This document shows positions 8,693 to 63,873 of a stretch of 64,000 nucleotides of DNA, piece by piece (position 1 is the stretch's first letter; each line of letters opens with the position of its first letter). Position numbers and translations under genes: made by a program. The DNA comes from Leuctra nigra (Eukaryota; Arthropoda; Insecta; Plecoptera; Leuctridae): contig OW203771.1 of NCBI GenBank assembly GCA_934045905.1, positions 19,910,069-19,974,068 on the forward strand. The letters are read 5' to 3'. Under the pieces are notes generated by a model. It made no database searches. It saw nothing but the letters and a program-made list of their open reading frames with translations, and was not told the origin of the DNA.

Positions 8693-11377
8693 ATGCTAGT
8701 AAATGCTAGAAGTGTATTAAATAAAATAGATAATCTTACAACAATGGTAGAATGTTATAATCCAGATGTGATAGTGGTAGTAGAAACATGGTTGTCGTCT
8801 GATATTCTTTCCATTGAAATAAATATAAATGGTTACTCTATGATTAGGAGAGACAGAAGTCGCCATGGAGGGGGAGTTCTTATTGCGACAAAGAAGGAAA
8901 TGGCATGTGATCTTCAGTGGGTTAGCAATAATTTTGAAATGATGGGGGTAAAAGTGAGTGTAAAAAATGGAAATATATTTAATGTTATAGGATGTTACAG
9001 AAGTGGGTCAGGAGGAATAGAATTTTTGAAAGAACTTCATGACAAAATTAAGATGTATGGTAAAAATGAAAAATTGATTATTGCAGGAGATCTAAATTTT
9101 CCCTTTTTGGTATGGGAACAAGGGTTGAATTATGGTGATAGTAAACAAAGTGTTGTGCATCAAATTATGAATTTAGGATTTGAAATGGCTGTCAAGGATG
9201 GAACGAGAAAAATTGCTTTTGGTAGAAGTAATATATTGGATATTGTACTAATCAAACCTGAAAGAAACATTATTAAATCTGAAGTGTTAGATGGAATAAG
9301 TGATCATGGAATTGTCCTCGTAGACATTCAGAATACATGTTGTAGTGTAAAAAAAGTTGATACACACTATGAATTTTGGGATTATAAGAAAGCAAAGAAA
9401 AAAGAATTTATAATTGAGTTAGAGAATAAATATGAGAAGTGGGTAGAAGGAAGCAATTCCGTAGAAAGTTTGTGGAATGCTTTTTGTATCATACTTGATA
9501 CAGCTATGAATAATCATGTAGTTAAAATTAAAATTAAAAGTAATGGTGATCCAGCATATTATTCCAAACCAATAAGAGCTCTAAAGCGAAAAGTTAGAAA
9601 ACATCAAAACAAGTATAAAAATACTAATTCTAATGTCATAGCTAATGGTGTAAATAAAAATCGAATTAAAGAATTAAGAAAAGATTTAGACAATGAGAAG
9701 AAAAAGGCGATGAATGAATATATGAAAGGACTGTTCAAAGAGGGAGATGAGGGTGGAGGATGGAAAAATTTGTATAGGCACATTAAAAGTAAAAGCAGCG
9801 TAGATAGGGATATCCCTAATCTTTTAGATAGTATGGGAAAAGTATGTAGATTAAATAGAGAAAAAGCAGAATGTTTAAATGACTTTTACTCTAAAGTATT
9901 TAATAGATCGTCCAACGCAAATTTAAATATTATTAATGGTGATGTAAGGGGCAATTTACCAATAAAATGTGACGTAGGAATAGTATGGAAAATTATCACA
10001 AAACTTAAAAATAAAAAAGCCCCAGGTCTTGATGGATATACAGGTGAATGCCTTAAGCTTAGAGGAGTCTCAATATCGAAGTATTTAAATCATTTGTTTA
10101 ACGTAATTTTAGCTAATAAAAAAATTCCCGTGGATTGGAAGCAGGCCGTAGTTATTCCGTTGTTTAAAGGAGGTGAAAGGAGTAAAGCCTGTAATTATCG
10201 GCCAATTAGTTTAACATCTACAGTATGTAAGGTCTTTGAAAGAATAATTTCGAATTACTTGAGGAGTGTCCTGGAAATGGATAAATGGTTTATTGAAGAG
10301 CAGCATGGCTTCAGATCAGGTATGTCCTGCGAGACTCAATTGACAATTCTTTCTCACGAGTTGTCAAGTATATTAGATAATAAAGGAGAAGTTGATGCTG
10401 TGTTCTTAGATGTTCAGAAAGCATTTGACAAAGTTCCCCATCATGCTCTGATCAATAAATTAAATGAGATAATAAGTGATAAATTAGTTGTTGAAATAAT
10501 CCAAGACTTTTTGAGAAATAGAACTCAAAAGGTAAAAGTGGGAGATACATTTTCGTCACTTATTAGGGTTGAATCAGGGGTTCCGCAAGGTAGTGTTTTA
10601 GGCCCTTTACTATTTATAATTTATATTAATGACATTTCGGAAAACATACAATCTAGTATAAAATTATTTGCAGATGACTGCGTTGTATATCGATGTATTG
10701 AGAATAAAGGAGATGAGAAAGCACTTCAAGATGATTTAAATAAATTAATGGAATGGATGCATAAAAATGAAATGACATTGAATTCAAGTAAATGTGAGAT
10801 GGTACAGTTTTCAAGAAGGAAGATTAGAAGGCAAGTAGAATATAAGTTAAATTGTGAAAAAATTAAAGTTGTTCATGGGTATAAATATTTAGGGATTTGG
10901 TTTGATGAAAAATTTAATTGGCAGGAACAAGTTAAAAGGGTTACTGGGAAATCGATTAAAAATACTAACTTTGTCATGAGAAATCTAAAGCATGCTGACA
11001 AATATGTCAAAAATCAAGCATATAAAACACTCATAAGACCCATACTAGATTACGGGAGTGCAATTTGGGACCCATATAAAATAAATGAAATAACTCTTTT
11101 GGAGAAAGCACAGAGAATGGCTGTAAGGAGAGTGACGAATGAAACCAGGAAGTGGAAGGTAAAGAGAAATGAAAAGGGAGTGGTTGTGAGAGAGTGGGTG
11201 AGTCCGACAGAGTTGATGAAGGAATTAAAGTGGGAGAAGTTGGAGGAAAGGAGAAAGGTAACGCGGTTATGTAATTTTTTTAGAATATATAAGCAAATTG
11301 GCGGGTGGAAACATTTTGGACAGCTTTTGAAATTGAAAAAAAGAAACGAACAGATAAGCATGAACATCAAATTATAG
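8693..11377 (+). CDS. CR1-like ORF2: APE endonuclease and reverse transcriptase (C-terminal frameshift)
   Basis: The frame is open from about 8624, but the first ATG is 8693, just before the endonuclease. The endonuclease (about residues 1-225) shows NARSVLNK, ETWL, GGGV, AGDLNF and SDHGIV. The reverse transcriptase shows NYRPISLTSTVCKVFERI, QHGFRSGMSCETQL, FLDVQKAFDKVPHHAL, GVPQGSVLGPLLF and the catalytic FADD (about residue 658). It nicks target DNA and copies its RNA there. The frame closes at 11377, but the conserved C-terminal tail continues in the +1 frame to 11535. This points to a one-base slip in the A-run at about 11335-11341. Otherwise undamaged. Confidence 0.88.
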   Translation: MLVNARSVLNKIDNLTTMVECYNPDVIVVVETWLSSDILSIEININGYSMIRRDRSRHGGGVLIATKKEMACDLQWVSNNFEMMGVKVSVKNGNIFNVIGCYRSGSGGIEFLKELHDKIKMYGKNEKLIIAGDLNFPFLVWEQGLNYGDSKQSVVHQIMNLGFEMAVKDGTRKIAFGRSNILDIVLIKPERNIIKSEVLDGISDHGIVLVDIQNTCCSVKKVDTHYEFWDYKKAKKKEFIIELENKYEKWVEGSNSVESLWNAFCIILDTAMNNHVVKIKIKSNGDPAYYSKPIRALKRKVRKHQNKYKNTNSNVIANGVNKNRIKELRKDLDNEKKKAMNEYMKGLFKEGDEGGGWKNLYRHIKSKSSVDRDIPNLLDSMGKVCRLNREKAECLNDFYSKVFNRSSNANLNIINGDVRGNLPIKCDVGIVWKIITKLKNKKAPGLDGYTGECLKLRGVSISKYLNHLFNVILANKKIPVDWKQAVVIPLFKGGERSKACNYRPISLTSTVCKVFERIISNYLRSVLEMDKWFIEEQHGFRSGMSCETQLTILSHELSSILDNKGEVDAVFLDVQKAFDKVPHHALINKLNEIISDKLVVEIIQDFLRNRTQKVKVGDTFSSLIRVESGVPQGSVLGPLLFIIYINDISENIQSSIKLFADDCVVYRCIENKGDEKALQDDLNKLMEWMHKNEMTLNSSKCEMVQFSRRKIRRQVEYKLNCEKIKVVHGYKYLGIWFDEKFNWQEQVKRVTGKSIKNTNFVMRNLKHADKYVKNQAYKTLIRPILDYGSAIWDPYKINEITLLEKAQRMAVRRVTNETRKWKVKRNEKGVVVREWVSPTELMKELKWEKLEERRKVTRLCNFFRIYKQIGGWKHFGQLLKLKKRNEQISMNIKL

Positions 11378-16528: not shown

Positions 16529-19500
16529 ATATATTTATTTGTAACTGATAATTTGCCACTAAAAGTATCAATAGATAGCGCTGCCGGCACTGTGAATATT
16601 TTCAAGATGGCGGGAGTTAAGGGTACTCTGTTCACGTCCAACGTGATTTCTTATGGCAAAACCAGGTTCAAAAACACGCAATTAACAGGATATTCAAACA
16701 ATTGAAGTCCTTTATAATCTGATACTAAGTAAACTTATGAATGTATGAACATACAGTAACTATTCGTTTCTGTTGATGGATGCTAGATAATTGTTAAATA
16801 AAACTTAACATTCAAAGTAATAACACTTCTGGAGTGACATGATTGGTTGGTCGATGGGCGGAGCTAGCTTCTCATTGGCTGACGCATTTCATGTTTGCAT
16901 CATTCTGAGACTGCAAGTTGAACTCGGATAAAAATTCTGAGGTGACAGATCGATAAAGCATAATATTTTTCATACTGGCAATTATTTTTAAGGTTCTACG
17001 TTTAATAGTGCCTGATGTAGAGGTGTCTAAACTTAGCATGTTGCTTATGAGAAATTGGTTCTAATACCCCAATCACTAGTGCCACTTTCTGCCGGCAGAG
17101 CGCTCAATGCAACTTTTAGTGAGAGTAAAACAAAAATGAAAGTAAACGAACGAATACGAACACAAGAAATTCGCACAACCAAGATCAGTTCTGCACTCTA
17201 GTGGTAGAGATGTGGTACTAGAGGAAAGGGTTCAACATTCAATTATCCATAAGGAACCTGTAGAGTTTGGATACCTCTACATCATACACTATTAAACATA
17301 GAACCATAAAAATTGTAAGTAGTATAGAAAAGATTATGCTTATTCGATCTGTCACCTCAGAAATGCATTTATTGTGTCTAAATAATTATAAAATAACTTT
17401 CCGTATGAAGCTAATACGGCTTATACTGTAGCCTGATTGGTCTGTTGAACCATTTCCTGTACTCTGATTGGCTGCTGCATTTCTTGTTTGCATGATTATT
17501 ACGCTGCAATTTAACCTCGGAGAAAAATTCTGAGGTGACAGATCGATAAAGCATAATCTTTTCTATACTCGTTACTTTTTTCAGGGTTCTATGTTTAATA
17601 GTGTATGAAGTAGAGGTATCCAAACTCTACAGGTTCCTTATGGAGAAATGAATGTTGAACCCTTTCCTCTAGTACCACATCTCCACCACTAGAGTGCAGA
17701 GCTGATCTTGATTGTGCGAATACAAAGCAGTCGGTGAATACTGCGCACCTCCCATGAAAACTGTTCTTGCTTGAGTTATGATTGTCTACAGATGAGGAGT
17801 ACCACATGCATCCGTCAGCCGCCACGAGGTCCAGGCGCAGCCACAAGCTCTCGGATCAAGAAAACGGTTAGTTGGCAAGAAGTACCTTCGAACCATAGAA
17901 TTATGTTAAAAGGTGTTTTAATTGATAAATTGACAAATTTGTGTCAATTTAACACACATTTTCTCCAAAATTTGAAGTAATACAATTTTGAAAATTATTC
18001 CATTTAAAAGCCAGTAAAATTCCGCTGGATATAGTACATTGTGTAAGTTCATCAGGCTTCCGAATGCGGAGCAAAAAATTTTTAAACTTGATATTTCCAT
18101 TCATTGGGTTGACCTATCCGGGAGGAAAATGTAGTAATGCAGATGCATAACTCTTCGAGAAAATAAGGATCACGACTGATATCTGGTTGATTCTTTGATA
18201 CTAGAGAAAGGGGGGATCAGGGAGAATATCCGTGGGATATTTAGATAAATAAATTTTATGAAACTTGCTTTTAGTTGTTTGTTATGGCTGAAAAAGTAAA
18301 CTTGTAACTATACATTTGAATTTCAATTGTTTCTCCTTTTTCACTGCCCTATGGAATTACAAACTTCAAAATAAAAAAAGTGAATCTATTAAGTTTCCTG
18401 CCAGCAGGGGCTCCGTATCGCTTGAAAATAGCCAGACGAAATAGAAATCAACTCGCGTTTTGAAAGGGAAACATTTTATTGTACACTTTGTGTTGCTTTT
18501 ACAAGTTTAAGATATAAAAACAATAATTACCCCAAAAATTACTTCTTTGGAGCGGAAATGCTTGCATGTATACCCCTCAAATCCGAATAGTATGGAAATG
18601 GTTATCATCTAGGAGAATGCGACCTTGGGGTCCACTGGTTGGTCTTTGTTTCAATCCTCTTGATGACTGTGCGGTGTGCCAGAGCGAATGGAAATCACAG
18701 CCTTATATACATAAAATGAATAGTACCAGACAAAGAGCAGCCATTGTCGACCTATCCATGCCTTCCCTTGAATTTGCGGTCCCCCCGGGCTGGCCTCCCC
18801 CCTCGAGATTGTGATCCCCCTGAAATCGGGTCCCGCCGGACCGAATCCTCACACCCCCGGTCCGTCCCCATTCCGGCCTGGTCTTCCCACCAATGCTGGA
18901 CTCCCCCGGATCGGGCCCGTTAGATCGATCCCCTCCACTTATTATCAACAAAGTTAAATGTACATCTTAATGTGCGGAATATAGCCTCGTCGTTGACGCG
19001 CCGTTAAACTATAATAATCTAATCTGGATACACTATTCATGTCATGTATACAAGGCTGTGATTTCCATTCGCTCTGACTGTGCTAAAAATCATTACTAGT
19101 TACTAGTGAGAGTATTATTACGTAAACTTATAGAGATGGAATAAGATGTTCATAGATGAGTCGTATTGGTCGCACACGGGTTGCAAAGATTGATTATGGC
19201 TTTTAGAATGAAGAATAATAAAATAGAAGTATATAGACGTTATACCATATGGACCAATCATTTATCTGTGAAACAAAGAAGTATCCACAATTCCTCTAGA
19301 CGCTCCCTTCTGGAATGCCGGGGCCGACGCGACGCTTCTGGAACATCTCGCCAGGCAACAGATCACGACCCCCGCCAAGAACGTCATCTTCTTCATCGGA
19401 GACGGGATGTCTGTGCCGACCCTCGCTGCAGCTCGAGTATACATGGGTCAAGAACAAGGATTTGACGGAGAGGAGCAGAAACTGGCGTTCGAGAAGTTAC

Positions 19501-22500
19501 AGTACACTGGAGTGTCGAAGGTATGTAAGAAACGTATTCAAATACAAATTCTCAAGATTGATAGGAGTCGATCCTAAATGCCCGTAATGGAAGCAATTCT
19601 CCGATTTAAGGACGTGGTTCAGAAGAGATGGAGAACCAAACGTTTTTTCTACACGGTAGAGGAGATCATCTGGATTGAAAACTGAATCTCCTCAGCCACG
19701 TTTGTTTGACAAATTTGGTTCGGATCGTGCGCAGAGTCTATTTGGTGCGAATAAAGTGACTCTGCACATGTACAGAACCAAGTTGATCGTTGCTAGTCTG
19801 AATCGGTCTTTAAGGGTCTATACTCAAGTAATAACCAGTGATAATACTTATATTATGTTCTCTTTCAGACCTACTGCGTGGACATTCAGGTAGCTGATTC
19901 CGCATGCACAGCCACCGCCTACTTGACTGGTGTGAAAACAAACGACGGTTGTCTCGGAGTCACTGGGAGGGTGGCCCCCGGAAACTGCACGGCTGAGAAT
20001 GAGCCTGGGAACAGACTGGACTCTCTCATAGCCTGGGCTCAGGTAATATCTTAGTTTGACGGAAATAGTTTCGCTCTAAAGTGATCCGCAGTCGATCTGT
20101 GGATTGTAATTTTCTTGAAAAACAGGTATTTTACGAACCCCTTAGCGAGCTCAACCCACGAGAAGGCTCGGCATGAACAATGGGGCGTGGTGCGCACGCA
20201 AGTAAAGTAGGGGACGGGAAAGTAAAATGACCCTTTTCCAATCCACAGATCGACCGCTCTTTTGGTTTCGCTGTTTTGACTGTCGCTCTTCTTGAGTCGC
20301 TCATTTTGGTGACAGTTCCAAATGAAAGTGTTTTTGTCTCCAGGCTGCTGGGAAACGCACCGGCGTCGTGACGACGACACGTGTGACGCATGCGTCGCCC
20401 GCCGGCGCCTACGCACGCTCCTCGAACAGGGACTGGGAGGACGACTTCATGGTTGACAGAGATGGTTGGGACCCGGCTGTGTGCCTGGACATCGCCAAGC
20501 AACTTGTCACCACCGAGCCCGGCAAGAGCATCAATGTCAGTAAAGAGTATTTTTTGGGGGTCTAAATCTAACAATGCAAGCGTAAAACATTCGGCTGCAA
20601 GCGCGAGCGATTTTGATGCTTTTTGTTGACACTTTTTGCGATACGATTGGGGACGAAATTGGCAGACCAAATTATTTGAAATTTTATATCGTGATTAGAT
20701 AAAAGACAAAATTTGGGTTATCCCTTGGTACATTATTAATTTTTTTTCGTTAATTAGTAATAATTAGTGGATTTTTGGTTAAAAAATTAGCTATTTTCTT
20801 GTCTCCCTGGGCGCCGTATCAAATTAAATTTCAAAAATGTGCCAAGTGATAACCCTAAGTTTGACTATCATCTAACAATTGGTTAACTAGTTTGGTCTCC
20901 AATCGTATCGCAAATTTCATTCGCACAACCAAGATCAGTTCTGCACTCTAGTGGTAGAGATGTGGTACTAGAGGAAAGGGTTCAACATTCAATTATCCAT
21001 AAGGAACCTGTAGAGTTTGGATACCTCTACAGCATACACAATTAAACATAGAACCATAAAAATTGTAAGTAGTATAGAAAAGATTATGCTTATTCGATCT
21101 GTCACCTCAGAAATGCATTTATTGTGTCTAAATAATTATAAAATAACTTTCCGTATGAAGCTAATACGGCTTATACTGTAGCCTGATTGGTCTGTTGAAC
21201 CATTTCCTGTACTCTGATTGGCTGCTGCATTTCATGTTTGCATGATTATTACGCTGCAATTTAACCTCGGAGAAAAATTCTGAGGTGACAGATCGATAAA
21301 GCATAATCTTTTCTATACTCGTTACTTTTTTCAGGGTTCTATGTTTAATAGTGTATGAAGTAGAGGTATCCAAACTCTACAGGTTCCTTATGGAGAATTG
21401 AATGTTGAACCCTTTCCTCTAGTACCACATCTCCACCACTAGAGTGCAGAGCTGATCTTGATTGTGCGAATAGTTTTGCGCGGTTTTGTTGAATGAAAAG
21501 GTGCAATCTGACTGATCATGTGAACATCCTGTAAAAGTTACACTCACTTATGAAACAATTTTTCTCTCTCAATTTTCTAAAACGGCCGAGCGCTTGTATC
21601 ACCTTAAAATACGTGTTTCTTTTACGAGTTGGTGAGCACCTTGAGTATTTTCATTCTGCGCAGGTAATTCTTGGAGGTGGTCGACGTCACTTCCGTCCCT
21701 CGACTGCTACAGATGAGGAAGGGTCCAGAGGTTATCGTCTTGCAGGCTCTGAGGATCTCATCGCACTCTGGCAGAGTGACAAGGAAGCAGCAAGCCAGCG
21801 CGCAGCGTAGGTTCAACGCAAATACTACTTTAATGAAATCAATGTTCATAATTAGATATGTATTTTAATATATTAGAATTGGAAAAACACCTACCATACA
21901 AAATAATTTTTATTAGTATAACGTATATTTTTGTTTGAATACATGCAATGTATTCTACGTTTCTTACATACAAGTAAAAAATACCCGATGCATTTAAAAT
22001 TTAGTTTTTGTAAAAAAAAATATTTTATTAATTCCAAGCTTCTATCAAAACGTCATGTCATGTGGTGGATGTCTCTGCACCACTTATTTTTTACATCTTC
22101 TTGTTAGGCTGGATCTTCTTGCCAGGTCCAACACTCAACTACCTCCTACTTTACGTCATTGTCTGCCTCTTCCTCTTCCGGTTTCTTCAACAAACGTCCT
22201 CCGTCTTTCAATGGAGATATATCCATGGTCTTTCTACGTCCTCTTACTCCTTTTCGTCTCATTCCACTTCTATCTTCTTTCTTCCTCAGCTTCTCCATTC
22301 CTCTCATTCACTTTGTTCCCGGTCGCCCTGCCCTATTCTTTCCCATAGTTTTTGCTCATTCTCCCTCGGAAAAATAAAAACATACATTTATAATTAATAA
22401 TTATACTATTATTTGAGTAAATAAACGTTTGGCGCTGTCAAGAATGAAATGTTGTTCCACAGATACGTGTGGAACCGAGATGATCTCTTGGCTGTGGATC

Positions 22501-31885: not shown

Positions 31886-34729
31886 CTAGTGGAGCGGTCG
31901 CTCCACACAGCCAAGTCGTACCGTACACTCACAGTCACTCTACATATACCGTAAATGCCTATATAAACTGAGGAGCAGACCAACTACTTTTACTGTAAGC
32001 AACAACATAGCATTTTCAGCCTACTGGATCTCAACTATGAAAAATCTCTCATTGTTGTGAAATGTCTTAATTTTGAGCTATGGCCCACCTGACAACATAT
32101 ACATCACGCGACAACAACCAGTCATGCCGTTTACGACCTAGAGGGCAGTAAAAATCGTGAAATTACACCGCTTTCTTCTTCTTCTTCTTCTTCTTCTTCT
32201 TCTTCAGATGATATCAGAAAAGGTCGCTGTCACCGCCACAGCCTAAACGGCTGAACCGATCAACCTGAAATTTTTACCACATATGCACTTTTGGCGTCTG
32301 ATGATACCTTGCCTCTTGTGATTTTTTGTGCCGCCATTTTTAAACCGGAAGTGACGTCATATATGAAAAACGGCTGGACCGATTAGAACGAAATTAGCGC
32401 CATTCGATTTAGATGGTCATCTATATGAAGTATGTTACTTAAAAATATAATTTTCTTATATTCTAAACCGGAAGTGACGTCATAAATTTGCAATATTTAG
32501 CTTATTTCATCAAATTATACTTTAAATACACATATAATTATCTTACATTGTAACATAGACAATACAAAAACACAGTGTTCTCGGCCGCCATTCCTGAAAC
32601 CGGAAGTGACGTCATACATCGAAAACGCCTGTACCGATTGCCACTGAACTAGCTCCTGTATATTCATTTTGCAATCTATTTGAAAAATCAATTGGGATAA
32701 ATGAATATACAAATTAACGGTACCGGAAATGGCGGCAGGAACCACTAAATGAAACCGGAAGTGACGTCATATATTGAAAACGGCATGAGCGATTTGACGG
32801 AAATTAGCGCTATTGAATTCAGAAGGTCATTCATGAAGTATCAACTAGATAAAACTTAATTGTTTTCTTATTACCTATACCGGAAATGACGTCATAAAAA
32901 TGCTAAATGACGTCATTAATATTCTAAAGGACACTAAATTCACCACTTTATACTTTTAAATAGATATTTAGTAAACATACATTGTAAATAATTATAAATT
33001 CAAGGTTGCAGTGCTCTCGGCCGCCATTTTCTAAAACCGGAAGTGACGTCATATAACGAAAACGGCTGTACCGATTGCAACTAAATTTTGGAATTGTGTA
33101 GGACTTATAATTATGAATTCAATACGACATTAATTTCGGCCGCCATTGTTAAAACCGGAAGTGACGTCATATATCGAAAACGGATGTACCGATTGCAACC
33201 AAATTTTAGAATTATGTCGGACTAATATAATTATGAAATAAAGACGACATTATTTTCGGCCGCCATTGTCAAAACCGGAAGTGACGTCATATATCGAAAA
33301 CGGCTGTACCAATTACAACCAAATTTTGGAAATGTGTAGGACTAATAATTATGAATTAAAGACGACATTATTTTCGGCCGCCATTGTTAAAACCGAAGTG
33401 ACGTCATTATCGAAAGCGGCTGTACCGATTGCAACCAAATTTTGGAAATAGTATGACTAATAATTATGAATTCAAGACGACATTAATTTCGGCCGCCATT
33501 TCAAAACCGGAAGGGACGTTATAATATATCGAAAACGGCTGGACCGATTGTAATTTCTTAGTACCTATCCTAATCGGTTGAGGCGTATTTTTTTAAAGAA
33601 ATTAGTCCTTGCTCGGACATGTGCTACAAGCTGTATGAATAAACTAACAAAAGAAGTGATATCCCAGAAAAAAACACTCCGTGTAAAAAAGGCAGCCAAG
33701 TCTCTTTACTTAAAAAAAAATCAACACCGAAAAGGAGTGATATCAAAAAAGGAGCCAAGTCAATGACATTTCCAAATATTTAATCGTATCTTTGAAATAG
33801 AAGTATAAACACCGAGAAATACTTTACAAAAGGACTTGGCGCATCGTTTTTTTAAAGACATTTTTCTATTCATAAGCATATGCCATTTATATACAACCGT
33901 AATTTAGAATTTTTAGAATAATAGGGACACAACTTTCAATTACATATTATACCTACATACCTACTGTAAAATATTTTCTATTTGAATATGTACGCGATGA
34001 AACTTGTTGCCTATATTTGTAATAAATATACAATAGTTATCTTCATATTATTGTTTCGTGGTCAACATAATTAAGTCTCATGCGTTACACCTTCTCACAA
34101 TGAAATACATTTCTATTAATCCACATTTTATAACAATACATTTCACAAAGTACACAGTGAAGTCACATTGAATAACTATTAAAACCATAATAATATACTT
34201 CCATAATATAATAGTGTTCTATAAATAGTTAGTAATTATTTGACAACTTTTCATGATTTCCCTCAGTCATGATCAAATTATGAAAAGATATCCTTCTAAT
34301 ATCACCATATTAACAGTGCTATAAGAATATATATGAGCCCACTTCCTTGTTATTTAATTCTACCCCCCCTATTATTACTTCTATTACAGCATGACATCTC
34401 TCTTCTATCGCCATTACAAAATTATAAAATAGCCATTACCAAAAGTAGCTTGATTCATAGATCCTGGCTCAAATAAAAAGAGGAATATGTACCTACTTGT
34501 TAATAATCTTTCCACTTTTAGGATAGAATGATGTCTTTAAAAAAACGATGCGCCAAGTCCTTTTGTAAAGTATTTCTCGGTGTTTATACTTCTATTTCAA
34601 AGATACGATTAAATATTTGGAAATGTCATTGACTTGGCTCCTTTTTTGATATCACTCCTTTTCGGTGTTGATTTTTTTTTAAGTAAAGAGACTTGGCTGC
34701 CTTTTTTACACGGAGTGTTTTTTTCTGGG
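31886..34729 (+). mobile_element. HP-3 element (left part of a larger insertion)
   Basis: Begins CTAGTGGAGCGGTCGCTCC directly after codon GGA-T of the LRR-like gene. A (TCT)n microsatellite lies at 32172-32207, followed by about ten ETS/CRE-like modules. These include a tandem array of about 118-bp units (starts near 33019, 33138, 33258, 33376, 33490) with GGCCGCCATT and ACCGGAAGTGACGTCAT. Palindromic end at 33663-34729. The LRR-like gene does not resume here, so this palindrome is not the outer right boundary of the insertion. Confidence 0.75.
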
Positions 34730-40810: not shown

Positions 40811-41970
40811 TTTACGATCTACTGGAGTCACTCAAATTAGGACATAACTAACTCCCATTGTGGTCGTATGCAGAATGGAGTAGACTGTGTTATGATGTTG
40901 TTAGAGTGTTGATACAAGTACTAATCTAGTTGCTAATGTATGTTTAGATTCATAATAATCTAAATAATTTCGTTGAATATAACCTCGTCTTCTTCGTCCT
41001 TCGTGTCTTGAAATTATCTTCATAATTTAGCCGGGTTTGGGATGCAACCCGCAACACAGCAGTGTGTTGCGGGTGGCGTGTAGGAGCAGATGGGTTCGGC
41101 CATGATGAATAGGATGAAACTGATTTAACCCCGCTTATAATTATACGTTTTAAGTTTATTCAAACCTTGAGTTATGAGTTGTAGTTTTGTGAACACCATA
41201 AATAAGGAAATCGTGACTAAAAACTATCTAAATGAACTTCTCAATAAATAGAGGAATCTTCAAACCCGACAGTAAAATAAAATGTGTAATATTTGGTCTC
41301 AAAATTTGATGCTTTACTACCTAAATATTATACATTTTATTTACTTGTCATTAAAAAGCTATCGTTATACCACAACACGCTCTATGGTATAAATAAAATC
41401 CTTTTACTGTCTTTTACAAAATGAGACAAAATCATCTATTAGTGAATTCCTCAGTTAAACTGGCGTAGATTTATGCACGTACTATGAATGTGTGAATTTG
41501 TGAATGTTTTGTTAAGCTTTTATTTTAGTTGTTTAGGACCATATTGCCATAGCAACAACCAATGACATTGGTGCGTCGTAATAATTTTAACAACATTTGA
41601 TTTTCTTTTCTCACGTCCACGTTTCGCATGCCACTTCACCTAGTGTCATATTGTCGGCTATTCACATATTGCATGTGATGTCATCTCATTGTTGCCGTCG
41701 CAGAATAGCTGTGATTCTCTGCTTTTTTGACGATATTTTATAGTTAATGAGTACCTGGGAAATTGTATAGGCTCCGGAGATTACTAAAGTACGAAGAGGA
41801 ATCACTCACATTACAAAAATACATCGGTTTGCCTCAATAAAGTTATAAATCTGACCCTTCAACGTGCCAACGTAATGGGTGGACAATTCAATAATTTAGT
41901 ATTGCTGATATAAAACAAAATAAGTTCGTGCAAGCTATGAATTGAGTCCTGCATATGCGTGTTGTTTACT
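40811..41970. other. Non-coding region, no gene seen
   Basis: Contains a short inverted repeat GCAACCCGCAACACAGCAGT/GTGTTGCGGGT near 41045-41075. Otherwise nothing supported. Confidence 0.35.
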
Positions 41971-41971
41971 C

Positions 41972-42645
41972 GGTGATCTCGGCCTTCTGGAGTCTTCTCG
42001 ACTGATTGCTTGATCTCGGCCTTCTGGAGTCTTCTCGACTGAGTGCTTGAACTCGGCCTTCTGGAGTCTTCTCGACTGAGTGCTTGATCTCGGCCTTCTG
42101 GAGCCTTCTCGACTGAGTGCTTGATCTCGGCCTTCTGGAGTCTTCTCGACTGAGTGCTTGATCTCGGCCTTCTGGAGTCTTCTCGACTGAGTGCTTGATC
42201 TCGGCCTTCTGGAGTCTTCTCGACTGAGTGCTTGAACTCGGCCTTCTGGAGTCTTCTCGACTGAGTGCTTGATCTCGGCCTTCTGGAGCCTTCTCGACTG
42301 AGTGCTTGATCTCGGCCTTCTGGAGTCTTCTCGACTGAGTGCTTGATCTCGGCCTTCTGGAGTCTTCTCGACTGAGTGCTTGATCTCGGCCTTCTGGAGC
42401 CTTCTCGACTGAGTGCTTGATCTCGGCCTTCTGGAGTCTTCTCGACTGAGTGCTTGATCTCGGCCTTCTGGAGCCTTCTCGACTGAGTGCTTGATCTCGG
42501 CCTTCTGGAGTCTTCTCGACTGAGTGCTTGATCTCGGCCTTCTGGAGTCTTCTCGACTGAGTGCTTGATCTCGGCCTTCTGGAGCCTTCTCGACTGAGTG
42601 CTTGATCTCGGCCTTCTGGAGCCTTCTCGACTGAGTGCTTGATAA
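41972..42645 (-). repeat. 37-bp minisatellite, about 18 units
   Basis: Unit CTCGGCCTTCTGGAGTCTTC plus 17 more bases, in strict 37-base phase with few point variants (AGTC/AGCC, GATC/GAAC). Because 37 is not a multiple of 3 and no minus-strand frame has a stop, it creates a 274-codon minus ORF (41935-42759). That ORF cycles through three peptide versions with a 37-residue period (for example SREDSRRPRSSTQSRRLQKA). No start context, splice sites or homolog support it as a gene. Confidence 0.92.
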
Positions 42646-43430
42646 ACCCGGCGATCCGGTATCAGCTCTCAGAGGCCGTGTGAACAAACACTCACGTGTC
42701 GCAGAGAAGCTCTCGATATTAACAAGTGGCTGCACGTTCCAAGCATCATTCAATATCATCGCGTTTTAATGCAGTGGTGGGTAAGCAAGTATCAAAACAC
42801 ACACCGTTCCGTTGACAGAATGTTGATAGATTTTACATAAGAGAATAAATATATAAATCATTGTAGTATGATTAAATGTTCCGTTTTTATTTCAATAAGA
42901 CTTTATACTGTAATAAGACTACATTAACTTAAAAGATTCCTGTAAATTGATAATCTTTCACTCCTACTTAATTTTCTTTACGTAATATTCAACCAAATTT
43001 CGAGCTTCAATGACGCCATATCAGCGTCCATAATTTGTTTATATATTGTTTAAAATATAAATAAAATCTCTCTTGGGGACATTAATTTAGAAACAGTACA
43101 GATTACAGAAAAATTTGTTAAAGTTCGGTGTTCGGTTATTAATATTACTAATGTGATGTTATATAAAAATTGTGCTCTAATTTCAATACCCTTCATAGGT
43201 AACTGTACATACATATTGCATGCACTTTAGTAAGGGGTTTTATGTTAAGTTACGTGATAGGGGTCCAAGATAACCAAATATTGTAAAAGTGGCGCGGTAA
43301 AGTTTAAGAACTGCGACCGTAGAACGTTATTTCTGTGTCAGCACCTCAAATTATACTTGTAAAATAAAAATAATATAAAAATAGTATGAGTAATGTGAAC
43401 GAAAATAATATCTTCGCGTAAAATGATTTA
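42646..43430. other. Non-coding region, no gene seen
   Basis: AT-rich, no ORF or repeat supported. Ends at the palindromic HP terminus. Confidence 0.35.
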
Positions 43431-55584: not shown

Positions 55585-58500
55585 AGAGGTCCGTGCCAAA
55601 AGAGCCAAAAGGAGACGCTCGCTTCGCTCGCTCAAAAATTGGAAAACATGTCTACGACTAAATATATTTATGTACCTCAGAGGTAGAAGGCCCGATGTCT
55701 ATTTCAATCATTTTTGTGAGTTCAGTTGGTATAATTCTGAATTCATCCAATCACATTTGTAATAGCAACACCAGTATTGTTGGATCAATATTTTTGATAT
55801 GTGTTGATTTTGTATCGTTGTTAATATAGACTATTTTTACAAAATGCCGGAGCCATAAGAAAACACAAAAAACACCACCTTCCTCCAATGGCCGGAGAAG
55901 TCACTATAGATTTCAAAAGAAGGCCCAAAGGTGGATTTTTGGACTGAGGGATGAGCCTTACGCTTTTATCAAAATAAAATTTAAACATTTAGGTATACCT
56001 ACCATATATGTAAACATGATAACTATTCAGTAAATAGGATTGCAAATGTCAAGTTAACATTTTGATGGGAGAATAACAGAGAATAATTTGGTAGATTCAA
56101 GTCATATTACTCTTTAATAATGTTTTTCAATATGTAGCGCAGTGGTACTCAGCCTGCGGCCCGCGGGACTAATGTTTGTGGCCCCCCCAATGACGTTTCA
56201 AATACTTTTAAAAGTATTTTAATCACTTTTAAATCACTTTTAAAATGATAAAATCTAAAAATCGCCCTCCCCCCCCCCCCCCCCCCCTCCTGATAAAAGT
56301 AGTTCATACGCTCCTGGAATTAACCTTACCACTGATGTAAAGTATCATGTGGTATAAAGATGTTATTGCTTGCAGATCAGGATTACCACATGCATCGGTC
56401 AACAGTACCCAAGACGCTGACCAGCAGCAAGTACTCAGACGAAGAGAACGGTCAGTACGTTTTACCATTTTTGTGAATTGAAAATAAGCAGTCATCGACT
56501 GTTATACACAAATAGGAGAGTGGATAATGTCTTATATCTCTGCCCTTGTCCACATTTCCCGCTACAAATTCAAGTTCTACATAGACTTGGACTAGAAGGA
56601 GACTAGAAAGGAGTTCAAGTAATCTGTGAAATCAAGTTCCCATCTTTCTGGTAGACGCACGCTTCTGGGCTGTCAACGGCGAAGTGACGCTTCTACATCA
56701 TCTCTCGAGGCAACAGATCACGACCCCCGCCAAGAACATCATTTTCTTCATCGGAGACGGCATGTCTGTGCCGACCCTCGCTGCTGCTCGCATCTACATG
56801 GGGCAACAGCAAGGATATAATGGAGAACAATGGCGACTGGCGTTCGAGGATCTACCTTATACAGGGATGTCGAAGGTAAGCAGTGGCATAATCAAATCAG
56901 GTTTTTCATTCTTGTTGATGATGCCCAGTTGTTAACGGCGGCGTTGAATGATGATGGGTTGAAGATGCTAACAGAGTAGACGACATAACTTTGGTAAAAG
57001 AATGCTCTAGACTCTGAGTTTCAACTATCACAGTAGCTAAGTAAGTGAGGAATAAGTTAACTTTTGAAACAGTCGTTCGCTCCACACTGGCTACAATTAA
57101 ACAGTTCGACCGATAAAAAGTGTGAGTTGATATAGAACTTTTCACACTCTGTATAGGGTGAGTGTCGGCCGGTGTAGTTTCAGTGTCACTCGTGTAGATC
57201 GAACGAACATAGGTACCTATCATGATGACAGGAATCGAGACCATATTTCCAGAATGCCAGCAAGGAAACTTAAAAACTTTCAACTCTAATTTTCTGATTT
57301 TCAAATATATTTGTGTGAAATTGATACCATTTTTAGAACGTTCTGTTCTAGCTGTTGGAAGAGTAACATCTGGAACAAGGTACTGGAAGACATTCCAAGT
57401 AACTCCATCTGTTGCAGACCTACTGCGTGGACGCCCAGGTGTCTGACTCCGCCTGCACAGCCACCGCCTTCTTGACAGGTGTGAAAGCGAACCAAGCGAC
57501 AGTCGGAGTCACTGGCAGATTGACAGAGAGCACCTGTACAGCCGAGAACATTCCAAGTAACTCCATCTGTTGCAGATCTACTGCGTGGACGCCCAGGTGT
57601 CTGACTCCGCCTGCACAGCCACCGCCTTCTTGACAAGTGTGAAAGCGAACCAAGCGACAGTCGGAGTCACTGGCAGAGTGACAGAGAGCACCTGTACAGC
57701 CGAGAACATTCCAAGTAACTCCATCTGTTGCAGACCTACTGCGTGGACGCCCAGGTGTCTGACTCCGCCTGCACAGCCACCGCCTTCTTGACAGGTGTGA
57801 AAGCGAACCAAGCGACAGTCGGAGTCACTGGCAGAGTGACAGAGAGCACCTGTACAGCCGAGAACATTCCAAGTAACTCCATCTGTTGCAGACCTACTGC
57901 GTGGACGCCCAGGTGTCTGACTCCGCCTGCACAGCCACCGCCTTCTTGACAGGTGTGAAAGCGAACCAAGCGACAGTCGGAGTCACTGGCAGAGTGACAG
58001 AGAGCACCTGTACATCCGAGAACATTCCAAGTAACTCCATCTGTTGCAGACCTACTGCGTGGACGCCCAGGTGTCTGACTCCGCCTGCACAGCCACCGCC
58101 TTCTTGACAGGTGTGAAAGCGAACCAAGCGACAGTCGGAGTCACTGGCAGAGTGACAGAGAGCAACTGCACAGCCGAGAACATTCCAAGTAACTCCATCT
58201 GTTGCAGACCTACTGCGTGGACGCCCAGGTGTCTGACTCCGCCTGCACAGCCACCGCCTTCTTGACAGGTGTGAAAGCGAACCAAGCGACAGTCGGAGTC
58301 ACTGGCAGAGTGACAGAGAGCACCTGTACAGCCGAGAACATTCCAAGTAACTCCATCTGTTGCAGACCTACTGCGTGGACGCCCAGGTGTCTGACTCCGC
58401 CTGCACAGCCACCGCCTTCTTGACAGGTGTGAAAGCGAACCAAGCGACAGTCGGAGTCACTGGCAGAGTGACAGAGAGCACCTGTACAGCCGAGAACATT

Positions 58501-61500
58501 CCAAGTAACTCCATCTGTTGCAGACCTACTGCGTGGACGCCCAGGTGTCTGACTCCGCCTGCACAGCCACCGCCTTCTTGACAGGTGTGAAAGCGAACCA
58601 AGCGACAGTCGGAGTCACTGGCAGAGTGACAGAGAGCACCTGTACAGCCGAGAACATTCCAAGTAACTCCATCTGTTGCAGACCTACTGCGTGGACGCCC
58701 AGGTGTCTGACTCCACCTGCACAGCCACCGCCTTCTTGACAGGTGTGAAAGCGAACCAAGCGACAGTCGGAGTCACTGGCAGAGTGACAGAGAGCACCTG
58801 TACAGCCGAGAACATTCCAAGTAACTCCATCTGTTGCAGACCTACTGCGTGGACGCCCAGGTGTCTGACTCCGCCTGCACAGCCACCGCCTTCTTGACAG
58901 GTGTGAAAGCGAACCAAGCGACAGTCGGAGTCACTGGCAGAGTGACAGAGAGCAACTGTACAGCGGAGAATATTCCGGAGAATAGGCTGGACTCCATCAT
59001 TGCATGGGCGCAGGTAACATTTGTCACTTAGGGCAGGTCTTTCAATCCGACGTTGGTTGTTGATTCTTCTTGTAGTGCCATGTCCGATTATCGAACGTCG
59101 GCGATCATGTCGGCTATCTTAGTCTTTTCAACTGCTAGTCTGAACAGTGTCTCAGTAGTTTGACCAGGTTTGACCAAACCACTGTAGCAGGTTCTTCAGC
59201 CATGAACATCGTCCCCGCTTTCCTATGATTTTCCCTTTAATGATGAGGTGCATGATGTTGTACGTTTCTGGATGCCTACTAAGGACTACGGCAATATAGT
59301 CATACTAATTAACTCTCTAAAATTTAGCAGAGTATTGAACAACTGGCCCTAAGAAGGACATCTTTTTGCGTTCTTGATTAGAAAAGAAGTGCTGCAAAAA
59401 AGAGTGAAATAAATAAATAAATAAATAATATGAAAATGGTCATTCACACTTCATGATGACTATAAGAATTGTTTGCATAAATTTACTTTAATTTGCATAT
59501 GAGCTCAACAATTTTATTTTATAATCATGTCATAATGTATATTAATTGTGTACCTCTGACCCCAATTTTATTGTAACCAGGGTTTGAAATTAAAAAAAAT
59601 AACAGGTCAAGCCATTTTTGGCATTGCGATTCTACACTATATTTTTTTGGTCTGTATCTTTCTAAGTAAATTCGTGACAAATGTGTTCACATCAGCAGCA
59701 ATTGCCGCGTCTGCCTCCAGGCTGCTGGGAAACACACCGGCGTCGTGACGACGACACGGGTGACGCACGCGACGCCTGCCGCCGCCTACGCACGCTCCTC
59801 GAACAGGGACTGGGAGGACGACTTCATGGTTGACAGAGATGGTTGGGACCCGGCTGTGTGTATCGACATCGCCAAGCAACTTGTCACCACCGAGCCCGGC
59901 AAGAACATCAATGTCAGTACAGGTCGATCGTAATTACCAAGTACAAAACTGCAGCATATTCTACTTTGGCGGGTGATTGTACTTAATGTCTTCAAATCAG
60001 TTTGTATTTTCATCAAAATCATTCTATACAACGACAGAGCATAGAATCTCTTCAAACTCAACAACACTATTATTAAAAAATAATATATTCTTTGTATTAT
60101 AAATTTTTCTGATTCAAATTATAATTATATTATCCGGCCACCGGAAACACTTGGTTTCCTAAGCTGTGTATCTATTTAAAAAAAATTATCATGATCAAAG
60201 ACAAACTACAGAAAGGGTATTGATTGAAAATAATAAGATCGCTCAAATAAGCTTGTATAAGATGTTTCTACATGAAAATAATCTAAAGGATATCTATAGT
60301 GGAGCGGTCGCCTCATGCCAGACAAGTCGTACGGCATGCACACTTCAACAGAAGTCAGAAAAACAGAAGTGAAACATAAATTATATAATTCAACTCTGAA
60401 AAATATTGACATCTAATAGATATCCCTGGTCGATTCCAAAAATGCAGCACTTAACAGTAACGATATCAAAAAATAGAGCAGGTAGGTATATATATTTTTT
60501 TTGTCTGGGGCTTAACGTCGCACTGTTCTGCAGCGAGGCTAATGGCGACGGATGAATGATTATGATGATGATTGGGAGATGATGGTGAAGAGTAGGTAAG
60601 GATGGAAGGTGGGAAGGAGGCGGTCGTGGCCTATTAGTAGGGTACCTTCCCAGCATTTGCCTGTCGACTGAGGGAATACCACGAAAAAAACCCAGTCAGG
60701 AAGAACGGCCGCGAGATTCGAACCCGGCCCTCCGGAATACAAGTTCAGAGCGATAACCACTCACCTAACCTGTTCCGTGTGTGTAGCTATATTATTAGTT
60801 GATTTCTGTCATATATCTATATTCTATAGATTTAAATACGAAATGCGCCAAGTACTTTTTGATTTTAAAACGAATATTTGTTGATTTCTTGATGTCATAT
60901 CTACTCGGTGGCGAATATTTAGATTTATTTAATAGTTTGTAGTTGCATATACTTGGCTATAATTTTTACATTGAGTGGTTTTTCCTGATTAATATTGTAC
61001 ATCCAGTCGGCAATTATTACTAACTCTTCCTAATCTGAGTGGAAATGTTTCTTCCTCCTGCGCAGGTAATTCTTGGCGGTGGTCGACGTCATTTCCGCCC
61101 CTGGAACATCCGAGACGAGGAGCGTGCGAGTGGTTCTCGTCTTCAAGGCTCTGAAGATCTCATAGAGCTGTGGAGAAGTGACAAGAAAGCAGCTAAACAG
61201 CGAGCAGCGTAGGTCGAATATTCATGAATAGCGTTCGTCTTAAATATGGAGAACTGAACGCTGTGGCTCTCGTACCAAATGCATGCAATATGACCGCGTT
61301 TTCAGGCCAGCAGGAATAAAAAATTAAAACATTTTAAGCTTCAACCTGATATCAATTTTAATTTAGAACTAGTCTTCTCTTATAAACAAATCGTCGGGTA
61401 ATTGTTTATTTGTTGCATACGCCCATTTCCTGATTTTTCAGGGGAGCTGCCTAAAGATAAATTTAGTAATATCTCTGAACATAGTTATCTGTAGATCGGC

Positions 61501-63873
61501 GGAATCTTATTATGATTGTAAAACATGTCACAGGTAATTATGGAATGGTGTATTAGTGTCATTTGTCTCTTGTTTTTCATAAATATTGCAATCAAGTTTG
61601 GATATGGGACACAGGTTCGCACATTTACCAACTATGACTATCTCGAGTGTCCCATATCCAAATTATTTAGCTATAAAACCACCGTACAGTGGCTATACAG
61701 TTTATTTTTTACTAAAATATTATACTGTCTACTGTTTCTTTAATTAATAATCAAAATAAATTATAAAATAAATTATAAATAAAATAAATTGTAAATTATT
61801 TTTGTTACATTTAAAACGGTTAAAACTGTTTCGAAGAATGTCAGAACAAAATTATCTTAATTATAAACAATTAATTAGACATGTGACATTATAAATTGAA
61901 CCTTGGCGTATAGTGTTTCTGGCGTTCCTAGTTTTGCTTCGCGAGTCACGTGACCAAATGAACACATTCTATTGGCTTGCCGAGGATATGGGACAAGCTA
62001 ACAATTAAAATATTTGCATTGCCGAGGATATGCAACAAATAAACATTAAGAAAACCAATTTCCTTGTAATTTTCTGCACTGTTTTCAGTGGATATATGAC
62101 AAGTAAGTACTCGGGAATATGTAGATGCATCTAACTCCAAAAGTGAAAAAACCGGATATGCAACAAATTAACAATTACACGACGAAATAATCAAATAAAG
62201 AAAAAAATTCATTAAATATTTAATAAGTTCTGTGCTTCAGAGTTAGAAGGCCGGAAGTACTTTCTATCTCGATTTTTCGATGCACTCTTTGAACGATAAT
62301 CAAGCTTTAGCAATAGGCCATTTAAGAAAGTCAAAGCGCATGCGATAAAGCCTGACAGGTCCACAGCCGTGTAGTGACTAGTTCTGTTTAGTGTCTGTCA
62401 TATTTACGTGTTGTTTTCGAGAAGGCTGTGGGTGGGATGACGTCACGCCGAGTCCTTTGAAGTGCGCACTGCGCATGCGTTTAAGCCTGATAACATTAGT
62501 ACCACACTTCACCAACAGATGTATCTTTACTTTCTTTAATGGCCTATTGAATTTGACTGATGTCAATTACAGTTATATTGAAGTAGGTATTCTCACAGGC
62601 ACGATAAATGTGGATTTTCTCGACGAAAAATCCGGCACCTACAGACTTTATTTTAGAAAAATTGCAATAAAAATACCGGAAATGACTTTAGTACTCCCTA
62701 GGTATAAGTATTATGATTATTCATGCCAAGTTTCAGCTTGCTATGTTGAACGGTTATTCAGTTTCGATCTTTTCTTGAATCATCTTGAACCAGTTTGGAT
62801 CGTCCTGGATATTACTTTGACTTTCCAAATTGGGTTGATTCGCTAAATATCGGTCTCAGCTGACATCTACATACAATATTTGCCCTGAAAATAAAAAGTC
62901 ATAACCCCCCCCCCCCCCCCCTTCCTTTCCCTGGAATTCCCTTTAGCCTGTGAGCTGGTATTGGTGTCAGAGACAGATTTGTAACATTTCTCATCACAGA
63001 TGAAGTGTATTATCTAATATTGTCGCACAGTTACGTGTGGAACCGAAGCGATCTACTCGCCGTGGACCCGAACAACACCGACTTTCTTCTCGGTCTCTTC
63101 GAGGCGTCTCACTGCAAGTATCATCTGGATGCGGATGCTGTGCTGGACCCGTCACTCGCGGAGATGACGGAGACGGCCATCAAGATGCTGGAGAGGGGGC
63201 CTAAAGGATACTTTCTCTTCGTAGAGGGTGAGTGACAAGTTGCTGCAATTTACTCTGGAATTGTTTTTAATCGATTATTATCAATATCTTTTACCAATTG
63301 TTTATAAAATAAGGCTTTGTACGCGTCTTCAGAACTGTTCAATGAAAATAATTTCATAGCTTGTAATGGTTTATTAGATTTACTTTGTCCTACAGATGTT
63401 TAGTGCCCGAAAATTAGTAAAAAAAATGGCACTAAACGTCTGAGTAAACGTCATTTGTTAATTAATGTAAACAAATGCAGTTTGAAGTATTCTCTTATAC
63501 AATGACTCATGCCACCATTACAAATATGATTGGATGAAGGCAGAATTACTGGTCTTTGAGCTCACCTCATGAATCATCGAGTTGGACCTCCGGCCTTTTA
63601 CCTCTGAAGGAGAGTAGTAATAATTTATATAAGCATATAAATTCAAACTTTACTAAGTTAGTTTGCGAATAAAATAATAAAATATGAACTGATGAAATGT
63701 ATTATGTTTCTAGGAGGGCGTATTGACCACGCCCACCATGACACAAAAGCTGTGAAAGCTCTGGACGAGACTGTACAGCTATCTCAAGCTGTTGATACAG
63801 CTGTTAGGCTGACAAATGAGAGAGATACGTTGATAGTTGTGACTTCTGATCATTCTCACGCAATGACATTCAA
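53184..63873 (+). CDS. Alkaline phosphatase copy 3 (3' partial; exon 4 amplified)
   Basis: Exons 53184-53292, 56376-56450, 56655-56875, [58840-59013], 59721-59912, 61066-61208, 63031-63227 and 63714-63873. Exons 9-10 lie beyond the window. Lengths and phases of exons 2-8 equal copy 2. Encodes signal peptide [37 protein letters not shown], nucleophile Ser in [44 protein letters not shown] and [10 protein letters not shown], so the visible active site is complete. I chose the ATG at 53184 over one 45 bases upstream because it matches copy 2 and begins the signal peptide. Nine extra partial copies of exon 4 precede the intact one; correct mRNA requires joining exon 3 to the last acceptor. Confidence 0.92.
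53421..54931. mobile_element. D-1: complete D-family inverted-repeat element
   Basis: 1.5 kb, from CTAGGAAAACGCTCTGAGTA to CACTGAGCGTTTTCCTAG, in ALP copy 3 intron 1. GAGCGAGCACGGATACGCGG near the left end is mirrored near 54470-54490, and the ~170 bp inside the ends (AACCGAAATTATGTCTATCG) is inverted at 54300-54480. So it may be two nested or partly duplicated copies. No transposase. Confidence 0.65.
54940..55640 (-). mobile_element. D-family fragment, inverted relative to 53600-54300
   Basis: Reverse complement of much of D-1's interior: GAACGGTCATTATTAGTTTC, GAAATGTTACGTACTTGTGT, a 38-base A-run (55545-55582) and terminus CTCGCTTCGCTCGCTC. Together with D-1 it forms a ~2 kb imperfect inverted repeat. 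Confidence 0.65.
56137..56200 (+). mobile_element. hAT-type terminal fragment
   Basis: CAGTGGTACTCAGCCTGCGG followed by CCCGCGGGACTAATGTTTGT, the classic CAGTGGTTCTCAACC-style end of hAT elements. The other end was not found; a C-run follows at 56270. Confidence 0.5.
56376..56450 (+). CDS. ALP copy 3 exon 2
   Basis: 75 bases, acceptor TGCTTGCAG, donor GAACG|GTCAGT. Encodes [20 protein letters not shown] and on. Confidence 0.85.
56655..56875 (+). CDS. ALP copy 3 exon 3: first metal-binding motif
   Basis: 221 bases, acceptor TCTGGTAG, donor TCGAAG|GTAAGC. Encodes [20 protein letters not shown] with the metal-binding Asp. Confidence 0.94.
57392..58971 (+). repeat. 10 x 158-bp tandem array of the ALP catalytic exon
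   Basis: Exactly ten units of 158 bases with no indels. Each holds the end of intron 3 (AAGTAACTCCATCTGTTGCAG acceptor region) plus the first 137 or so bases of exon 4, including the Ser codon. Exon starts: 57418, 57576, 57734, 57892, 58050, 58208, 58366, 58524, 58682, 58840. Units 1-9 break off at ACATTCC and enter the next unit out of frame (158 = 3x52+2). Only unit 10 continues into [13 protein letters not shown] and a donor. Units differ by only a few substitutions each, so amplification is recent. Confidence 0.97.
58840..59013 (+). CDS. ALP copy 3 exon 4 (the only intact copy)
   Basis: 174 bases as in copy 2, acceptor CTGTTGCAG, donor GCGCAG|GTAACA, 58 codons: [20 protein letters not shown] then on to IIAWAQ. 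It is the tenth unit of the array. Confidence 0.92.
59721..59912 (+). CDS. ALP copy 3 exon 5
   Basis: 192 bases, acceptor TGCCTCCAG, donor [29 protein letters not shown] replaces [17 protein letters not shown] of copy 2. Confidence 0.95.
60294..60988 (+). mobile_element. HP-5: decayed HP copy with nested SINE
   Basis: CTATAGTGGAGCGGTCGCCTC resembles the hairpin end with mutations. Palindrome relics ATGCAGCACTTAACAGTAAC (60441) and GCGCCAAGTACTTTTTGATT (60845) flank a SINE. No ETS/CRE modules remain. In ALP copy 3 intron 5. Confidence 0.55.
60487..60782 (-). mobile_element. tRNA-derived SINE
   Basis: Minus strand: tRNA-like head with A box (GGTTAGGTGAGTGGTTATCG) and B box (GGGTTCGAATCTC), a ~200-base body, 3' end GCGACGTTAAGCCCCAGACA and an A/TA-rich tail. 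This is the standard arthropod SINE layout, transcribed by RNA polymerase III. Confidence 0.8.
61066..61208 (+). CDS. ALP copy 3 exon 6
   Basis: 143 bases, acceptor CTGCGCAG, donor GCAGC|GTAGGT. Encodes [20 protein letters not shown]. Confidence 0.94.
61209..63030 (+). other. ALP copy 3 intron 6
   Basis: No nested gene supported. Holds a short inverted repeat (TTTGGATATGGGACAC at 61598 and GTGTCCCATATCCAAA at 61646), a 151-codon frame at 62391-62846 without a recognised domain, and a C-run at 62906-62921. Confidence 0.5.
63031..63227 (+). CDS. ALP copy 3 exon 7
   Basis: 197 bases, acceptor TCGCACAG, donor AGAGG|GTGAGT. Encodes [20 protein letters not shown] and ends LFVEG. Confidence 0.94.
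63714..63873 (+). CDS. ALP copy 3 exon 8: zinc ligands
   Basis: 160 bases, acceptor GTTTCTAG, donor TTCAA|GTAGGT. Encodes [20 protein letters not shown] and [10 protein letters not shown]. Last exon visible in the window. Confidence 0.94.

What the first reader, a model, noticed from the sequence alone, without database searches (positions are those of the whole stretch)
57392..58971. Ten-fold tandem amplification of the alkaline phosphatase catalytic exon with one usable copy
Seen directly: ten 158-bp units, each with an apparently identical 3' splice acceptor and the nucleophile-Ser coding sequence, but only the last has the full 174-base exon and a 5' splice site. Splicing exon 3 to any of the first nine acceptors gives about 46 correct codons, then a frameshift and a stop inside the next unit. 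That would be a ~206-aa truncated, probably NMD-targeted product. Nine decoy acceptors before the real one could act as a splicing brake on this paralog.
Basis: partly seen in the sequence, partly recalled or inferred. Interest (0 to 1): 0.88.

Follow-up and report, generated by a model that had tools for sequence, protein, structure and literature searches.

The report
Mirage splice-site array in stonefly gene
In a stonefly alkaline phosphatase gene, the start of one exon with its splice site has been copied ten times in a row, most likely as harmless intron filler of a kind (mirages) so far described in amphioxus, and several related genes in the same genome carry similar arrays.

Summary
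Window 57390-58976 holds ten 158-bp head-to-tail units at 98% matches, each with an identical 3' splice site and the nucleophile-serine sequence. Only the tenth continues into the full 174-nt exon and its donor. Joining exon 3 to any of the first nine acceptors and reading on gives 46 in-frame exon-4 codons and a stop at codon 71. The gene is otherwise intact where I could read it.

It is not unique. The genome is the stonefly Leuctra nigra. Eight of 12 alkaline phosphatase loci, by my grouping, carry 14 arrays (unit 60 bp or more), each across one exon-intron boundary: nine acceptor-side, five donor-side. Thirteen control genes (7 CCT, 6 P450) showed none.

This matches amphioxus 'mirages', whose RT-PCR suggested undisturbed splicing (PMC3087553, passages). 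Most likely the nine extra copies leave as intron, because only the last acceptor has a strong donor nearby (inferred). The 'splicing brake' reading is untested and has no support here. An insect occurrence and the density in one gene family appear new in my limited searches.

The parts
57390..58976 (+). tandem array, ten 158-bp units, each spanning intron 3' end + acceptor + 5' part of the catalytic exon (mirage)
   Evidence: TRF; unit comparison; acceptor contexts
57418..57418 (+). first exon base after decoy acceptor 1; decoy acceptors repeat every 158 bp (57576, 57734, 57892, 58050, 58208, 58366, 58524, 58682)
   Evidence: all nine, read through, lead to a stop at codon 71
58840..59013 (+). 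working exon 4 (174 nt, phase 0, nucleophile serine in [11 protein letters not shown]), formed by unit 10 plus unique sequence and donor CAG|gtaaca
   Evidence: its donor scores above 17 of the 22 family donors used for the matrix
56376..56450 (+). exon 2 of the alkaline phosphatase gene
56655..56875 (+). exon 3, donor AAG|gtaagc
59721..59912 (+). exon 5
61066..61208 (+). exon 6
63031..63227 (+). exon 7
63714..63873 (+). exon 8 (two further exons lie past the window end, at 65226-65374 and 65804-66066 in extended coordinates)
19299..21805 (+). neighbouring alkaline phosphatase paralog, part shown by tblastn, with a single exon 4 (about 19870-20042) and no array
   Evidence: tblastn; no TRF row of period 60 or more there

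Best explanation
The array is a mirage: a minisatellite made by repeated tandem duplication of a segment that straddles an exon-intron boundary. A first duplication joined the later part of exon 4 back to a point 28 bp upstream of its acceptor through a short patch of microhomology, and unequal exchange or slippage then took it to ten near-identical units (inferred). The pre-mRNA keeps the normal protein because only the tenth acceptor has a strong donor at exon distance, so under exon definition the other nine copies are removed as part of an enlarged intron 3 (1964 nt instead of 542; the splicing outcome is inferred, not shown). Such arrays are tolerated at a boundary because splicing, not the reading frame, decides whether the extra copies matter.
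For: Array and single complete copy. Left and right array edges share ATTCC (by eye). The gene is otherwise intact: 523 residues and a stop from exon 2 on, PF00245 1-423/423 at 1.4e-145. All ten GT sites in a decoy unit were scored with a small matrix: the best three reach 5.3-5.8, below all 22 family donors in the matrix (7.3-11.9), while the true donor scores 10.1. Fourteen arrays in 8 of 12 ALP loci each span one boundary; by TRF period 13 of 14 units are not multiples of 3, so they could hardly stay in the mRNA. Some decoys have stops (gene B) or 5-bp length changes (L016), and one decoy set lacks a 24-bp stretch with the GDG motif of the working exon (gene C exon 3). Repeats that lie inside exons keep the frame: 45 bp in a nearby P450 (L051 1264-1461) and 36 bp in the last exon of gene C (L014 463-538). 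Amphioxus mirages have the same anatomy, with 150-160 and 157 bp units on either exon side, and RT-PCR suggested normal splicing.
Against: No transcript, read or second-haplotype data were available. Decoy variants show 30 nonsynonymous, 21 synonymous and 1 stop type against a neutral expectation of 36.3, 13.9 and 1.8, a mild shortage of nonsynonymous changes; exchange with the working copy could explain it. All 141 copies found keep their AG or GT. That the usable copy is last (acceptor side) or first (donor side) follows from geometry and is not independent evidence. Plain tolerance does not by itself explain why 13 control genes had no such array. Mirages are described in cephalochordates, not insects.
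Confidence: 0.87

Rival explanations
1. Splicing brake: the nine decoy acceptors compete with the real one, divert transcripts to NMD and so keep output of this paralog low, perhaps in a regulated or copy-number-dependent way.
For: Nine acceptors identical to the real one lie upstream of it, and all give early stops if read through. All 141 copies found in 14 arrays keep their splice dinucleotide.
Against: Decoy splice regions show no clear extra conservation in 11 arrays (10 variant types per 134 columns against 85 per 903 in exon parts). Decoys lack a good donor. Similar arrays in other ALP genes sit on other exons and on donor sides. Amphioxus RT-PCR suggested no interference.
Confidence: 0.08
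2. Assembly artefact: a single exon 4 was expanded by the assembler.
For: Tandem repeats are a known source of misassembly (general knowledge), and neither reads nor the alternate haplotype were seen.
Against: Assembly from 32-fold PacBio HiFi with 12-20 kb shearing and QV 57.2 (PMC10280035, part 1 of 3 read), so single reads can span 1.6 kb. Six of ten units differ from unit 3 by 1-2 bases. Arrays with other units occur in 7 further loci.
Confidence: 0.03
3. Alternative exon cassette: units are used as mutually exclusive or repeated exons to diversify the catalytic region.
For: Each unit carries an acceptor and coding sequence for the nucleophile serine.
Against: Units are nearly identical, so little diversity is gained. 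They lack a good donor. A 139-nt decoy exon ending at the weak CAA|GTAACT site shifts the frame, and only 19 nt would separate it from the next acceptor.
Confidence: 0.02

Closest known systems
Mirages of amphioxus genes (Adh3, globins BflGb6 and BflGb9, troponin C, PGBD5)
   Same: Minisatellite-like tandem duplications that span an intron-exon boundary and include the splice site, on the 3' or the 5' side of an exon, with the authentic exon copy kept; unit sizes overlap (10-72 bp in Adh3, 150-160 and 157 bp in globins, 60 and 108 bp in PGBD5; passages).
   Different: Host is an insect (Plecoptera), not a cephalochordate. Copy numbers here reach 10, and 35 in L016, against 3-6 in the globin case and 2-7 in PGBD5 that I saw. 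Fourteen arrays in one gene family. Transcripts and haplotype variation not examined here.
Intron gain by tandem genomic duplication (AGGT proto-splice-site duplication)
   Same: Internal tandem duplication of gene segments that carry splice signals.
   Different: No new intron is made here; an existing intron is lengthened by partial exon copies. Seen only as search listings and as discussed in the passages.
Tandem or mutually exclusive exon arrays (Dscam type)
   Same: Head-to-tail exon-derived copies in one gene.
   Different: Those copies are complete, diverged exons with acceptor and donor; here nine of ten lack the 3' part of the exon and a good donor. The Dscam side is general knowledge.

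Membership tests
mirage | minisatellite-like tandem repeat | tested here: met
   10.0 x 158 bp, 98% matches
mirage | unit spans an exon-intron boundary and includes a splice site | tested here: met
mirage | authentic exon copy kept, gene otherwise intact | tested here: met
   exon 1 not found
mirage | regular splicing not disturbed | not testable with these tools
   no transcript data
mirage | copy-number differences between haplotypes or cells | not testable with these tools
   an alternate haplotype, GCA_934046545.1, is deposited but was not available to me
mirage | reported host group (cephalochordates) | tested here: not met
   host is Leuctra nigra, an insect; a matter of known distribution, not of anatomy
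intron gain by tandem duplication | a new intron compared with paralogs | tested here: not met
   in the array-free paralog of the window exons 3 and 4 are also separate (19299-19521 and about 19870-20042)
mutually exclusive exon array | each copy a complete exon with acceptor and donor | tested here: not met
   units 1-9 lack about the last 40 nt of the exon and its donor
alkaline phosphatase (PF00245) | full-length domain match | tested here: met
   1-423/423, E 1.4e-145

The most novel reading that the evidence does not exclude
The stonefly has a mutational process that is aimed at exon-intron boundaries rather than merely tolerated there, and it has repeatedly built mirages in the alkaline phosphatase family (14 arrays in 8 of 12 loci, units of about 74-170 bp), independently of cephalochordates. 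Re-integration of small, nucleosome-sized circular DNA made from exon edges would be one candidate source (speculation). The resulting stock of spare splice sites may in some genes tune splicing.
Probability: 0.2. Interest if true: 0.78.

Novelty: new member of a known kind. Interest (0 to 1): 0.55.

Why it matters
The mirages I found in print are all from amphioxus. Finding them in an insect, with both splice-site polarities and many copies in one gene family of a HiFi genome, makes the questions they raise testable: how a spliceosome chooses one of ten identical acceptors, how such arrays arise, and whether they seed new introns or exons. It also warns that automatic annotation may misread such genes as having long or repeated exons.

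Tried and rejected
Organism: guesses held before identification (amphioxus among them) were dropped once six scaffold lengths matched the Leuctra nigra table and the longest scaffold and N50 matched contigs to the base. Telomere test: of 11 contig ends read none was telomeric; the first 600 bases of C10 held a short degenerate TTAGG run, which only hinted at an arthropod. Text searches for '536.2 megabases' and variants found nothing.

Considered and rejected or not relied on: random placement of arrays. Under rough assumptions (12-14 genes, 18-20 boundaries each), 14 of 19 arrays at exon boundaries gives P of 1.6e-6 to 2.3e-4. This rests on assumed exon counts and on loci chosen for one family, so it is only a hint. 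Constraint on decoy splice sites: not shown (11 of 14 arrays; the intron column of that table is inflated by flanking sequence). A 141-bp x2 repeat in a CCT locus (L042) lies in an intron, and a 185-bp x2 repeat in L039 is the same dispersed repeat as in L012. Five repeats of period 60 or more in the ALP loci are not counted as exon-derived: L012 5172 and L015 2301 (dispersed repeats), L020 1183 (intron by position), and L014 6347 and L018 9506 (judged from the consensus only; short open stretches). In one search one array (G10b_ex10) was read in a wrong frame; it contributed no variants.

Wanted but not done: a genome-wide or random-sample rate, a mitochondrial search (PF00115, unanswered), and other families (PF00135, PF01433, unanswered). 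Whether ALP genes are special rests on 13 control genes (8 of 12 ALP loci against 0 of 13, Fisher P 0.0005; 7 of 11 without the finding's gene, P 0.001; against the 7 CCT genes alone 0.013). Control exons were known only from profile hits, and repeats under 60 bp in controls were not checked against exons. The P450 search scored 92 of 835 candidates and says nothing about arrays.
Full report
What is there. The window holds an alkaline phosphatase gene on the + strand. TRF places a tandem array at 57390-58976: period 158, 10.0 copies, 98% matches, no indels. Each unit is the last 28 nt of intron 3 with its acceptor, then about 130 nt of exon 4. Relative to unit 3, units 6, 7 and 8 are identical and the other six carry 1-2 changes each. 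All ten acceptors have the same 24 nt upstream. Only the tenth unit runs into the rest of exon 4 (58840-59013, 174 nt, phase 0) and its donor CAG|gtaaca. Read through from any of acceptors 1-9, exon 3 is followed by 46 in-frame exon-4 codons, 25 unrelated ones and a stop at codon 71.

The gene is otherwise intact where read. Joining exons 2 to 10 of my model (two of them past the window end) gives 523 residues and a stop, with AG and GT at every intron. Pfam PF00245 is matched over 1-423 of 423 positions (E 1.4e-145). The best relatives with solved structures are tissue-nonspecific (human) and shrimp alkaline phosphatases (species names recalled). Exon 4 carries the nucleophile serine in [11 protein letters not shown], aligned with QVTDSAASATA of the shrimp enzyme (the serine's role is recalled knowledge).

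Which organism. The assembly rests on 32-fold PacBio HiFi reads of DNA sheared to 12-20 kb, consensus QV 57.2, which makes a false 1.6-kb array unlikely.

The same thing happens in other paralogs. A search of the genome with PF00245 gave 85 matches, which I group into 12 ALP loci; three distant pieces on C7 are taken as one gene, which is an assumption. I fetched 147.6 kb around 11 of them (the twelfth lies in the window); some long introns, above all on C7, were not fetched. Among repeats with period 60 or more (TRF), fourteen arrays in 8 loci each contain one exon-intron boundary: exon 4 of the finding's gene (10 x 158 bp); exon 4 of another member of the C10 cluster, donor side (8 x 170); three arrays in a gene at C10:2.68 Mb (13 x 137, 3 x 148 and 2 x 148, the last donor side); two in a gene on C9 (2 x 137 and 35 x 160); two at C13:14.7 Mb (15 copies spaced 67-88 bp, and 10 or more x 74, donor side); one on C1 (4 x 92, donor side); three on C7 (8 x 124, 21 or more x 100, 3 x 92); one on C2 (7 x 133, donor side). 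Nine are acceptor-side and five donor-side. That the complete exon is the last copy in acceptor arrays and the first in donor arrays follows from geometry. Not forced by geometry: no array of this size lies wholly inside an ALP exon, and by TRF period 13 of 14 units are not multiples of three. By contrast, two smaller repeats that I saw inside exons keep the frame: 45 bp in a P450 beside the cluster (L051 1264-1461) and 36 bp in the last exon of gene C (L014 463-538). Five other repeats of period 60 or more in the ALP loci are not counted as exon-derived.

Are the extra copies used? Nothing suggests it. Gene B decoys contain stops. One decoy set of gene C lacks 24 bp, including the GDG motif of the working exon. 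Decoy spacing in L016 varies by 5 bp. Among 108 comparable decoys of 117 examined (9 dropped for indels, divergence or a wrong frame), variant types were 30 nonsynonymous, 21 synonymous and 1 stop; a neutral expectation was 36.3, 13.9 and 1.8. That is a mild shortage of nonsynonymous changes, against full neutrality; exchange with the working copy is one possible cause. In 11 arrays, splice regions of decoys had 10 variant types in 134 columns, exon parts 85 in 903, so no clear extra conservation, although all 141 copies found keep AG or GT. A small donor matrix from 22 ALP donors scores the ten GT sites of a decoy unit at 5.8 or less, below every donor in the matrix (7.3-11.9), and the exon-4 donor at 10.1. 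Since the ten acceptors are identical, only their position relative to that donor can distinguish them; exon definition is the simplest account (inference). Intron 3 is 1964 nt, or 542 nt without the nine extra units.

How it arose. The two array edges share ATTCC, with further imperfect similarity (by eye). This fits a first microhomology-joined tandem duplication, then slippage or unequal exchange (inferred). Edges of eight other arrays were printed in the same call but not analysed further.

Controls. Seven CCT loci (65.5 kb) and six P450 genes (39 kb) showed no repeat of period 60 or more across an exon boundary; their exons are known only from profile hits. By locus that is 8 of 12 against 0 of 13 (Fisher P 0.0005), or 7 of 11 against 0 of 13 without the finding's gene (P 0.001); against CCT alone P is 0.013. 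The families differ in introns and evolutionary rate, and ALP exons sampled are somewhat richer in G+C (mean 0.58 of 20 against 0.53 of 17), so this is a lead and not proof that ALP genes are special. It also means that plain tolerance of boundary duplications may not be the whole story.

Comparison with what is known. [quoted passage not shown] PGBD5 and troponin C of amphioxus are further cases (passages of PMC3902484). By anatomy the stonefly array is a mirage; normal splicing and copy-number variation are not tested. I found no report of mirages in an insect in the library searched, which lacks most subscription papers; the original Adh paper was not seen.

Verdict. It is a new member of a known kind in a new animal group, made more interesting by its density in one gene family.

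Noticed in passing
window 4812-5077: Exact two-fold tandem repeat of 132 bp, each copy with a histone 3' UTR stem-loop on the minus strand (Rfam RF00032).
   Followed up: partly
window 6225-11377: Two long consecutive ORFs on the + strand that look like a LINE (by eye); the first contains about 34 copies of a 30-bp in-frame repeat.
   Followed up: no
window 33017-33550; L015 2301-2870; L051 5202-5856: A dispersed 118-bp tandem repeat that recurs near several ALP loci, in opposite orientation in the window and the two loci.
   Followed up: no
L016 2294-7803: The largest boundary array: 35 copies of about 160 bp with 5-bp length variants and a partly alternating pattern that may be a two-unit higher-order repeat.
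   Followed up: partly
L051 1264-1461: In-frame 45-bp x 4.3 repeat inside a P450 exon just downstream of the ALP cluster.
   Followed up: partly
L014 463-538, minus strand: In-frame 36-bp x 2.1 repeat near the C-terminal end of gene C's last exon.
   Followed up: partly
L025 about 2991-4298: The C2 alkaline phosphatase has most of its catalytic domain in one long exon, unlike the many-exon paralogs.
   Followed up: no
window 41935-42759, minus strand: 37-bp minisatellite, 18.1 copies at 97%, open as one 274-aa reading frame.
   Followed up: no
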